Origin: Rhizobium sp. SL86
GTDB taxonomy: Bacteria; Pseudomonadota; Alphaproteobacteria; Rhizobiales; Rhizobiaceae
Length of the DNA stretch: 64,000 nt
Direction: 5' to 3'
Assembly: GCF_026672545.1 (NCBI RefSeq)
Contig: NZ_JAPPRJ010000009.1
Coordinates: forward strand, 62,001-126,000
This document shows positions 59,379 to 61,837 of this stretch, one piece after another; positions within the stretch are counted from its first letter, which is position 1, and each line of letters opens with the position of its first letter. A model generated the notes under the pieces. That model searched no databases. It was given only the letters and a program-made list of their open reading frames with translations, and was not told the origin of the DNA. The position numbers were made by a program, and so were the translations under genes.

Positions 59379-59957
59379 TCAGAGCGCGTCGAGATTGACG
59401 CCGATGGTGATAGCACCGATCGGGGCGCCAGTCTCGTCGCTGATCGTCATGGACGCCTGCGACTGGAGCGCCTGGGTCGATTCGTCCTTTTCGGCACCAT
59501 CGACGAACAGCGCATCCTTGCCTGCCCCGAAGCTCTTCTTGAACTTGGCTTCGTCACCCTGCCAATAGTCGGAGGTGACATCGCTCTGCCCGACGTTCAG
59601 GCCCTTGTTGTCCATGACGAAGACCTCGGAAATGGCACCGGCAGAGGCCGCCTGCTTCTCTTTCAGGAAGGCCGAGACGGCATTGCCAAGTGTTTCGGTG
59701 ATCAGGGGCTTGTCGGCCCCGTCGACCTCGGCCCGCCACTTCTTGTCGAGGGCGATGATCTCGGCCTCGCCGAGTGCGGCATGTTTGCTGTTCTGCGCCT
59801 TGATGGCGTTGACGATCACCGGATCGTTGACCCAGGATGCGACGTTGGTCTTCACATAGTCCGTCACCGGCGCCACATGCGCCTCCTCGGCAAAGCTCAC
59901 CTGATGGGACAGGGCAAGTATGGCGGCTGCGGTGAAGCAGTTACGCAGATATTTCAT
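59379..59957 (-). CDS. Small periplasmic protein, sensor-domain-like
   Basis: This 192-residue protein has a Sec signal peptide (MKYLRNCFTAAAILALSHQV, cleavage near FAEEAHVA). The mature part resembles a free-standing PDC/Cache-type sensor: a long helix, then AISEVFVMDNKGLNVGQSDV, YWQGDEAKFKKSF, and a closing strand GAPIGAITIGVNLDAL. It has no membrane anchor besides the signal peptide. It lies 98 bases downstream of chemoreceptor 2 on the same strand, so it may supply a ligand-binding function for it; this is inference. Confidence 0.75.
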   Translation of the reverse strand: MKYLRNCFTAAAILALSHQVSFAEEAHVAPVTDYVKTNVASWVNDPVIVNAIKAQNSKHAALGEAEIIALDKKWRAEVDGADKPLITETLGNAVSAFLKEKQAASAGAISEVFVMDNKGLNVGQSDVTSDYWQGDEAKFKKSFGAGKDALFVDGAEKDESTQALQSQASMTISDETGAPIGAITIGVNLDAL

Positions 59958-60055
59958 GGGGTGTTCCTCTCAAGAATAAGGGCGCGTTTTCGGGACCATT
60001 TTGCCAAACCCGCCGCGCCGGTCCCCCCGCGCAGGCATCGACATGCAAGGCATGG

Positions 60056-61837
60056 TTACGCGACGCGACGCTCAGGCTGGACACCGATCGCATGCTCAAG
60101 CTGGAAGCGGTCGGATGCGTTCTGCATGATGCGGCTCTGGGACAGGAGGTCGTGTGAGGCGGCGCTGACCTCTTCCACCATGGCCGCATTCTGCTGTGTG
60201 GTTTGATCCATGCTGTTGATGCTGGCGTTGATTTCCTGAAGCCCGGACGCCTGCTGCCGGTAGGATTCGACGATATCGACAATGCCATCGGCGATCTTGG
60301 TGATGTGCTCTTCGATCTTCAGCAGGGCATCGCCGGTCTGGTTCACCAGCTGCACGCCGCTGGTCACCTCGCTGTTGGACACCTGAATGAGCTGCTTGAT
60401 CTCTTTTGCCGCATTGGCGGAACGTTGCGCCAGTTCGCGCACCTCCTGGGCGACGACGGCAAAACCCTTGCCGGCCTCGCCTGCGCGGGCTGCCTCCACG
60501 CCGGCGTTCAGCGCCAGGAGGTTCGTCTGGAAGGCGATTTCATCGATCACCCCGATGATCTGGCCGATCTGGGACGACGAATGCTGGATGCGTGTCATGG
60601 CGCCGATGGCATTGCGCACGACCTGGGCCGAATGCGCTGCTTCCGATTTGGCGTCGCCGACCATGGCTCCGGTTGCGGCGGCATTGTGGGAGGAGGTGCT
60701 GACGGTGACCGTCACCTCGTCGAGCGCCGCTGCCGTTTCCTCAAGCGCTGCGGCCTGCTGTTCCGTGCGGCGCGCCAGCTGTTCGGCCTGACCGGAGAGT
60801 TCCACCGCCCCGGATTCCACCGTCCGGGCGGCGCCCTTGATTTCGGTGATGGTGGCTGCGATGGACTGGACCATCCGGTTGAAATCCAGCTGGAGTTTGT
60901 CGAAACCCGGTCCGAGATCTTCCAGCTGCGTGTTCAGATCGCCGGCAGCCAGCCGCTCCAGTGCTGCACCGACGCGGGACATGATGCGCGCCTGGGTCGC
61001 GGCATTGTCTTCGGCCAGACGGGCGTTACGGGTGCGTTCACTGCTGATGGTTTCCTGCTGTTCTTCGGCGAGCCGCCGCTGGGCCTGTTGTTCGATGGCG
61101 TCCCGGCGAAACCCTTCGATGGCGCGTGCCAGAAAACCGATCTCGTCACCCTTTTGCTGGAAGACGACAGGTGACTGCAGGTCTCCGCTCTGCAGGCCGG
61201 TAATCCGGTTGCTGAGCTGGTTCAGCGGTTGTCCCACCATGCGCCTCATCGTGGCGATGAAGGCGATGATCGCTATCAGGATGACCGCCGATTCAAGCGC
61301 GACCGATGTCAGCACCTGCATACGGATCTGCTCAAGAATCGGCCCTGCCGTCCAGGTCGTGACAACGTAACCGGTCGGCTTGCCGCTTTTGTCGGCCGGC
61401 AGCGGCGCGGCGATCGTCACATAATGGCTATCCGCGCCGGTATCGATGACCATGGTCTTGTCCGGCTTCGTTCCGGCCGCCTGAGCAATGGTCGCGTCGG
61501 CGGGAAGGCCTGCGACCTCGGACCGGTTCCAGCTGTTGACCGGCTTCAGATCGGCACCAAAGGCCGCAAACTGCACCAGATTGAGCGCCGGATTGTCGCG
61601 ATAGAGCGCATAGGCATCGGCCACCACCTCGGACTTGCCCCATTTGACGCCGCCGGCGGCCAATGTCGCGAACTGGGCGGTGTCCTTGCTCCAATTGCCG
61701 GACACCATGGACAGCATGGCCTTACTTTCGTTGCTCCAGGTCACCACGGCAAGACCCGCTACACCGAGAAGGTTGATGGTGACAATGATCGCCGACAGCT
61801 TGGCTGTCAGCGAAATTGACTTGATAGAACGCAGCAT
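60056..61837 (-). CDS. Methyl-accepting chemotaxis protein 2
   Basis: This 593-residue chemoreceptor has its start at the ATG at 61837 ([20 protein letters not shown]) with GAGGG upstream; a GTG at 61849 is less well placed. It has TM1 at about 10-32, a periplasmic domain of roughly 150 residues ([40 protein letters not shown]), TM2 near 185-205, HAMP ([20 protein letters not shown]), and the signalling hairpin core [20 protein letters not shown]. No CheR pentapeptide. It shares an almost identical hairpin with chemoreceptor 1. Confidence 0.95.

What the first reader, a model, noticed from the sequence alone, without database searches (positions are those of the whole stretch)
59379..61837. 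Chemoreceptor followed by a free periplasmic sensor-domain-like protein
A full chemoreceptor gene is followed, same strand and 98 bases later, by an exported 192-residue protein with Cache/PDC-like features, then a terminator. A secreted accessory sensor dedicated to one receptor would be an unusual two-part sensing module. The family assignment of the small protein is tentative.
Basis: inference. Interest (0 to 1): 0.5.

Follow-up and report, generated by a model that had tools for sequence, protein, structure and literature searches.

The report
Chemoreceptor with separate exported sensor protein
Next to a bacterial chemotaxis receptor lies a gene for a small exported protein shaped like a detached sensor domain; relatives of this protein often sit beside receptors in other bacteria, which suggests a two-part smelling device that I did not find described.

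Summary
A chemoreceptor gene (60056-61837, minus) is followed 98 bases later by an exported 192-residue protein (59379-59957) and a terminator-like hairpin. AlphaFold with Foldseek and VIA places the small protein in the Cache/PDC sensor fold; no Pfam model matches it.

The pairing is conserved. In 385 genomes of its class, 47 of 52 standalone relatives lie within 400 bp of a receptor gene (46 chemoreceptors, 1 histidine kinase); of other genes in the same loci, 3 of 495 have a non-partner chemoreceptor beside them. Gene order varies. Partner receptors carry at least two unrelated sensor domains: a short Cache-like one (window type) and CHASE3 (second pair of the same genome). Small proteins of CHASE3 partners form one supported clade. 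Receptor motifs such as GGVKWxK are common in paired receptors and rare in unpaired relatives.

Best reading: a soluble periplasmic Cache-fold sensor that docks on its receptor, as solute-binding proteins do. Binding, ligand and interface are untested. Against an obligate pair, 18 of 82 copies in named genomes lack an adjacent receptor, and 13 of 14 such genomes searched show no window-type receptor anywhere.

The parts
60056..61837 (-). Chemoreceptor (MCP) coding sequence from ATG 61837; an alternative GTG start lies at 61849
61280..61825 (-). TM1, periplasmic sensor domain (class I, Cache-like) and start of TM2 of the receptor
   Evidence: alignment A2; AlphaFold pLDDT 94.9; Foldseek matches include WalK, KinD, Tlp3
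61634..61654 (-). GGVKWGK motif of the receptor sensor domain, at the outer end of the long first helix; common in receptors paired with the small protein, rare in the unpaired relatives examined
   Evidence: 60 paired vs 15 unpaired: G58 95% vs 13%, W62 82% vs 7%, K64 95% vs 7%; helix 6-61; a role in docking is inference
61106..61249 (-). HAMP domain of the receptor
60200..60661 (-). MCP signalling domain
59958..60055 (-). 98-base intergenic spacer; the scan found no promoter-like or terminator-like site in it
59379..59957 (-). Exported standalone Cache/PDC-fold protein, 192 aa
59889..59957 (-). Likely Sec signal peptide (residues 1-23, cleavage after SFA)
   Evidence: read from sequence; A23 nearly invariant; of 102 relatives with a WRAE-type motif, 99 have a hydrophobic segment in place and 0 a lipobox by a simple script
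59544..59612 (-). Conserved block D116-K138 (DNKGLNVGQSDVTSDYWQGDEAK)
   Evidence: D130, Q133, G134, D135, E136 in 131 of 131 rows
59400..59402 (-). Codon of G186: Gly in 73 of 74 class I-paired proteins, Glu in 25 of 25 class II-paired
59333..59353 (-). Terminator-like hairpin after the small gene

Best explanation
The two genes encode a two-part chemoreceptor. The small protein is exported by Sec, folds as a single Cache/PDC sensor domain and stays soluble in the periplasm. It most likely binds a small molecule (or another cue) near its conserved DxxGLNVGQS..TSDYWQGDEaK block. It then docks on the membrane-distal end of the receptor sensor domain, near the GGVKWxK motif, and so changes CheA output, much as solute-binding proteins do with Tar or Trg (recalled). 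Shown: gene pair, export-signal-like N-terminus, predicted fold, conserved adjacency, sorting of the small-protein tree by receptor sensor-domain class. Inferred: solubility, contact, docking site, pocket and ligand, direction of the response.
For: (1) In 385 genomes of the class, 47 of 52 standalone relatives (the own genome's second copy counted, the window copy not) lie within 400 bp of a receptor: 25 CHASE3-type, 18 Cache-type, 4 other; background 3 of 495. (2) Adjacency survives different arrangements: receptor then small, small then receptor, divergent. (3) In L157 the neighbour with the same class I sensor domain is a histidine kinase, so the link follows the sensor domain rather than the output. 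(4) CHASE3-paired small proteins form one supported clade (25 rows, 100/90); all partner labels need 22 changes against a shuffled mean of 73. (5) Small-protein distances keep a partial correlation with sensor-domain distances given the signalling domain: 0.36 (59 class I pairs, 0 of 500 permutations as high) and 0.32 (22 class II pairs, 2 of 500); the converse, with the signalling domain given the sensor domain, is 0.22 and -0.01. (6) Receptor residues differ between paired and unpaired relatives in both classes. (7) The fold is that of known sensor domains. (8) Related Cache domains are fused to what read as periplasmic binding proteins; two of these (L125, L197) are directly beside an MCP.
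Against: No contact, ligand or phenotype was tested. 18 of 82 copies in the named-genome set and 5 of 52 in the class sample have no receptor within 400 bp; three of these 23 are tandem copies in a cluster with an MCP (L041, L050, L121) and one (L085) ends near a contig end. In 13 of 14 orphan genomes searched, no class I receptor was found at E<=0.001 (completeness of these genomes not given). Close relatives of both receptor sensor domains exist without the small protein (8 of 28 class I places at 100 bits or more; 12 class II-like places at 103-155 bits not at any place of the small gene). The window's order (receptor then small) does not occur among the 52 of the class sample; it is seen in 28 of 82 named copies, almost all Rhizobiales. 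Paired and unpaired receptors are also different clades, so motif and tree signals may partly be shared ancestry. The receptor models were built from partners, so reverse counts lean towards pairing.
Confidence: 0.6

Rival explanations
1. The small protein is a constitutive accessory or tuning subunit of the receptor (stability, dimer geometry, inhibition) without a ligand of its own, as YycH with WalK (recalled) or HmsC with HmsD.
For: Same genomic evidence. Foldseek lists the WalK-YycH integrative model among its top matches, I take it through the WalK sensor domain. HmsC-HmsD is described in PMC8846402 (passages).
Against: The fold is one of ligand-sensing domains and the most conserved block lies about where such domains carry their pocket (recalled; not mapped on the model here).
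Confidence: 0.2
2. The two genes share a stimulus but not a contact: the small protein scavenges, buffers or carries a ligand and is merely co-regulated with the receptor.
For: Orphan copies exist without a class I receptor; chemotaxis and uptake genes are often linked (general knowledge).
Against: No recurrent transporter or enzyme accompanies the pair: the commonest Pfam family reached 5 of 140 neighbours scanned. The small-protein tree follows the receptor sensor-domain class.
Confidence: 0.12
3. The small gene is a fragment cut off from a double-Cache receptor, drifting or newly used, with no present role in sensing (compare SMP_2 in PMC4822843).
For: PMC4822843 section 9 describes SMP_2 as a sensory module cut off from its protein; xpt-linked orphans have lost some conserved residues.
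Against: Conservation across 131 rows (27 positions at 93% or more) and over 33 of 277 genera sampled is not that of relics.
Confidence: 0.05
4. Adjacency is accidental.
For: None found.
Against: 47 of 52 against 3 of 495.
Confidence: 0.01

Closest known systems
Solute-binding-protein-dependent chemoreceptors (e.g. maltose-binding protein with Tar, recalled; review passages in PMC9602780)
   Same: Soluble exported protein thought to dock on a receptor sensor domain; several unrelated receptor sensor-domain types are served
   Different: The soluble partner here has a Cache/PDC fold, not a periplasmic-binding-protein fold, no transporter family recurs beside the pair, and binding is unproven
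CetA-CetB bipartite energy-taxis receptors (Campylobacter; Magnetospirillum CetBA2, PMC12442639)
   Same: Separate PAS-like sensor protein encoded beside its MCP
   Different: CetB is a small cytoplasmic FAD-PAS protein; here the sensor-like protein has a signal peptide and a Cache fold
Cache/PDC sensor domains of receptors (KinD, DctB, CitA, Tlp3)
   Same: Predicted fold; related domains also occur inside what read as histidine kinases
   Different: Those are parts of membrane receptors; this one is free-standing. PMC4822843 section 9 names only SMP_2 as a Cache family cut off from signalling outputs
Binding-protein plus Cache fusions (PDB 5ere; L188, L189, L125, L197)
   Same: Exported proteins holding a Cache domain, some beside an MCP or a histidine kinase
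   Different: They carry an extra domain in front; the window protein does not
'PDC sensor domain-containing protein' (annotation name, e.g. Ruegeria TM1040_RS01395 beside MCP TM1040_RS01400)
   Same: Same family, small gene beside an MCP
   Different: Order is small gene then MCP; a name only: the phrase was in 0 papers of the library

Membership tests
Cache/PDC sensor superfamily | PAS-like fold with N-terminal helix | tested here: met
   pLDDT 87.1; Foldseek E 4.4e-7 to KinD; VIA Z 13.1, rmsd 6.3, 141 aligned with 3lid and Z 12.9, rmsd 2.7, 125 aligned with 2p7j
Cache/PDC sensor superfamily | match to a Cache sequence model (Pfam) | tested here: not met
   0 families at E<=1 for the window protein; two related fusions reach dCache_1 below its cut-off (L125 1.1e-5, L189 3.6e-4)
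Cache/PDC sensor superfamily | extracytoplasmic part of a membrane receptor | tested here: not met
   free-standing 192 aa protein, no output domain
SBP-dependent chemoreceptor system | exported partner protein without membrane anchor | tested here: met
   signal-peptide-like N-terminus in 99 of 102, lipobox in 0, C-terminal TM-like segment in 3 of 102 by a simple script
SBP-dependent chemoreceptor system | partner has a solute-binding-protein fold | tested here: not met
   the matches listed are Cache/PDC sensor domains as far as their titles tell; 5ere aligns by residues 353-493
SBP-dependent chemoreceptor system | direct binding of partner to receptor sensor domain | not testable with these tools
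   no complex prediction or bench work available
CetA-CetB bipartite receptor | sensor protein is cytoplasmic and FAD-binding | tested here: not met
   window protein has an export-signal-like N-terminus; FAD binding not tested
CetA-CetB bipartite receptor | sensor gene adjacent to its MCP | tested here: met
   47 of 52 relatives beside a receptor
Methyl-accepting chemotaxis protein (receptor gene) | MCPsignal and HAMP domains | tested here: met

The most novel reading that the evidence does not exclude
A widespread proteobacterial class of two-part chemoreceptors uses a free Cache-fold protein as interchangeable periplasmic sensor. The same small-protein family is matched to unrelated receptor sensor domains (Cache-like, CHASE3, long unnamed ones) and once to a histidine kinase. 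It would follow that some CHASE3 domains, whose function is called unknown in PMC8846402, are docking platforms for such proteins rather than direct ligand binders.
Probability: 0.45. Interest if true: 0.75.

Novelty: new variant of a known kind. Interest (0 to 1): 0.6.

Why it matters
In bacteria with dozens of chemoreceptors most have no known ligand, and screening usually tests the receptor sensor domain alone (general knowledge). If many receptors sense through a separate Cache-fold protein, such screens would miss the ligand. It also gives CHASE3, a domain called of unknown function (PMC8846402), a concrete testable partner, and names residues to mutate on both sides.

Tried and rejected
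Sequence searches for a family name: none in Pfam or NCBIfam and no credible PDB sequence match (the three weak hits are designed TIM barrels). Homology between the small protein and the class I receptor domain by profile comparison: none (hhalign probability 2.4), so a 'split double Cache' cannot be claimed from sequence. A shared metabolic neighbour that would hint at the ligand: none (140 of 162 neighbours collected were scanned). The idea that class I receptors always come with the small gene: rejected, 8 of 28 places at 100 bits or more lack it. Of the 15 unpaired class I receptors fetched (the best 15), some sit beside other exported proteins: L184 ABC_sub_bind and L181 DUF4399 by Pfam, L183 by similar sequence, L182 and L185 by size and position only. 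For unpaired class II-like receptors, 12 loci were fetched and 11 gave a row; my simple export flag marked several neighbours, but those beside the receptor whose sequence starts I saw read to me as cytosolic proteins or fragments, so I saw no clear companion. A class I receptor elsewhere in orphan genomes: not found in 13 of 14. A two-protein MCP paper (PMC12442639) first looked like prior art but concerns cytoplasmic CetB. Two rows first labelled class II (L092, L130, 22.7 bits) were relabelled 'other'; the tree was run before that, with L092 among 26 class II rows.

Limits: the genome search scored at most 8 first-look candidates per genome in the large profile searches, so copies may be missed. 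Named and class sets overlap in part (e.g. L079/L119, L098/L135). L062 and L063 are one contig. The gene caller was home-made. One search left out near-identical pairs and receptors with a short signalling part, and its permutations do not remove shared ancestry. The bootstrap had not settled. One search shows 50 of 84 matches with E<=0.001.

Full report
OBSERVATION. On the minus strand the window holds a chemoreceptor (60056-61837 from ATG, or to 61849 from GTG), a 98-base spacer, an exported 192-residue protein (59379-59957) and a terminator-like hairpin at 59353-59333. The receptor has HAMP and MCPsignal but no named sensor domain; the small protein matches nothing in Pfam or NCBIfam at E<=1. 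The window lies in a 5.98 Mb genome with 47 MCPsignal matches over the cut-off. Its class is Alphaproteobacteria by the named records nearest to it.

FOLD. AlphaFold on an alignment of 16 rows (window included) gave pLDDT 87.1. The Foldseek matches listed against the PDB (50 of 84 with E<=0.001) are, as far as titles tell, Cache/PDC sensor domains: KinD 4.4e-7, DctB, CitA, Tlp3 and others. VIA gave Z 13.1 (rmsd 6.3, 141 aligned) for 3lid and Z 12.9 (rmsd 2.7, 125 aligned) for 2p7j. The receptor sensor domain, modelled on 60 rows, gave pLDDT 94.9, and its best matches are Cache-type sensors. The two domains are not detectably homologous by profile. One VIA match, 5ere, is titled an extracellular ligand binding receptor and aligns by residues 353-493 only.

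CONSERVATION. Besides the own genome, 14 of 59 related genomes (10 of 35 in the genus) have a relative of the small protein, and the own genome has a second copy beside another MCP. In an even sample of 385 genomes of the class, 44 (own included; 33 of 277 genera) have it, at 60 places. I fetched the neighbourhoods of the 59 places other than the window's own: 52 are standalone (domain score 140 bits or more) and 7 are weak or fused. Of the 52, 47 lie within 400 bp of a receptor: 43 precede it on the same strand and 4 are divergent; 5 do not. Of those 5, one (L121) is the first of two tandem copies whose second touches an MCP. The window's own order, receptor then small, is not among these 52. 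In the same loci 3 of 495 other genes have a non-partner MCP neighbour. In the 80 best named loci (82 copies), 28 follow the receptor as in the window, 29 precede it, 7 are divergent and 18 have none within 400 bp. Of 17 plasmid records with a match I looked at 5: three have the small gene followed by an MCP (Ruegeria TM1040, Rhizobium TCK, Agrobacterium MA01), two have none beside it (Azospirillum, Pseudoalteromonas). In a phylum-wide sample 37 of 398 genomes matched, 15 of them outside the class. Of six standalone-sized copies fetched from those, L203 and L204 are beside an MCP, L201 beside a GGDEF-EAL protein on the other strand, L205 646 bp from a GGDEF-EAL protein with a Cache domain, L202 and L206 beside neither.

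PARTNER SENSOR DOMAINS. Class I is the window's short Cache-like domain (76 ORFs in the loci L036-L172). It includes L157, where it sits on a histidine kinase (HisKA 2.2e-12, HATPase_c 6.8e-25). Class II is CHASE3 (6.2e-13 in the receptor of the own-genome second pair). A third group of mostly long receptors is mostly divergent from the small gene. In the tree of 131 small proteins the class II ones form one clade (25 rows, 100/90), and all labels need 22 changes against a shuffled mean of 73 (L092 was then still labelled class II, and the bootstrap had not settled). Residue 186 is Gly in 73 of 74 class I-paired and Glu in 25 of 25 class II-paired proteins; since class II is one clade, this may be a single event. 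Partial correlations of distances are higher with the sensor domain (0.36 and 0.32) than with the signalling domain (0.22 and -0.01) for classes I and II.

REVERSE TEST. With a model of class I domains, 20 of 28 places at or above 100 bits in the 385 genomes are beside the small gene (one search held); the model was built partly from these, so the count is biased. In the 15 best unpaired class I relatives the GG..W.K residues are mostly gone: G58 95% to 13%, W62 82% to 7%, K64 95% to 7%; L177 keeps them. In 11 unpaired class II-like relatives Q128 falls from 100% to 18% and V138 from 72% to 0%, while other motif residues (M132, T137, R142) stay. In the class I model the motif sits at the end of the long first helix (6-61), which in Cache domains points away from the membrane (recalled). 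For class II I infer the same from the likely order of helices; no model was made.

OTHER ARCHITECTURES. Related Cache domains occur at the C-terminus of longer exported proteins that read as binding proteins. L125 and L197 are beside an MCP; Pfam supports the front part only weakly in L197 (SBP_bac_3, 0.016, below cut-off) and not in L125. L189 has Peripla_BP_5 (2.1e-146) and lies beside an HD-domain response regulator; L188 is similar by eye and lies beside a histidine kinase with a near-threshold dCache match. Such domains also occur inside what read as sensor kinases (L190-L195). Several other fusions (L166, L168, L196, L198, L200) have no signalling gene among the neighbours that I scanned. 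Recurrent metabolic neighbours of the pairs were not found (5 of 140 at most), so the pair looks self-contained.

AGAINST. In Rhizobiaceae the small gene also occurs directly next to the phosphoribosyltransferase gene (as at 62279-62848 in the window) without a receptor (10 of the 27 loci with that gene, two of them one contig). In 13 of 14 orphan genomes searched (14 of the 18 named copies without a receptor) no class I receptor was found at all; in one (L114) there is one elsewhere. The xpt-linked orphans have partly lost conserved residues (Q124 kept in 2 of 9, T128 in 3 of 9), as expected if their role changed.

LITERATURE. PMC4822843 (passages and section 9) says Cache domains serve as modules of signalling proteins, SMP_2 excepted. 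PMC9602780 (passages) reports that 13 solute-binding-protein families are known to bind receptors. PMC12442639 (abstract, passages, introduction) describes cytoplasmic two-protein receptors. PMC8846402 (passages) calls CHASE3 function unknown. Searches gave, in the listings that I saw (25 of 26, 20 of 42), no title or abstract start on an exported Cache protein paired with a chemoreceptor; only open-licence papers are held. Statements on Tar/Trg and YycH are recalled.

VERDICT. A real, conserved gene pair that most likely forms a two-part periplasmic receptor with a Cache-fold soluble partner. It works, I think, like a solute-binding-protein-dependent receptor but is not one by fold. Interest 0.6.

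Noticed in passing
L125:5655-6998, L197:5121-6461, L188:2568-4358, L189:5129-6964, L166-L169, L196, L198-L200: Longer exported proteins, several reading as binding proteins, with a C-terminal Cache domain related to the window protein; L125 and L197 lie directly beside an MCP, L188 beside a histidine kinase.
   Followed up: partly
L157:6453-8105: A histidine kinase carries the same class I sensor domain as the window chemoreceptor and also lies beside a small Cache gene.
   Followed up: partly
L062/L063, L067, L068, L073, L074, L084, L094, L105, L111 (and window 62279-62848): Rhizobiaceae orphans: the small gene sits directly after the phosphoribosyltransferase gene with no receptor; in the window a receptor lies between. 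Suggests loss or gain of the receptor at one site.
   Followed up: partly
L181, L182, L183, L185, L184: Distant class I receptors without the Cache gene lie beside other exported proteins (DUF4399 in L181, ABC_sub_bind in L184 by Pfam), so this receptor domain may take different soluble partners.
   Followed up: partly
L041, L050, L121: Tandem copies of the small gene beside one receptor.
   Followed up: no
L201:5232-5765, L205:5460-5969: Outside the class, small Cache genes near GGDEF-EAL genes instead of an MCP.
   Followed up: no
L062 and L063: The same small gene on both strands of one metagenome contig (JAHHDR010000031.1), probably an assembly palindrome.
   Followed up: no
window 52997-54904: A second MCP with a four-helix-bundle match below cut-off (PF12729, 4.4e-5) lies about 5 kb away on the other strand, next to a TonB-dependent receptor gene; I did not look for a partner gene.
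   Followed up: no
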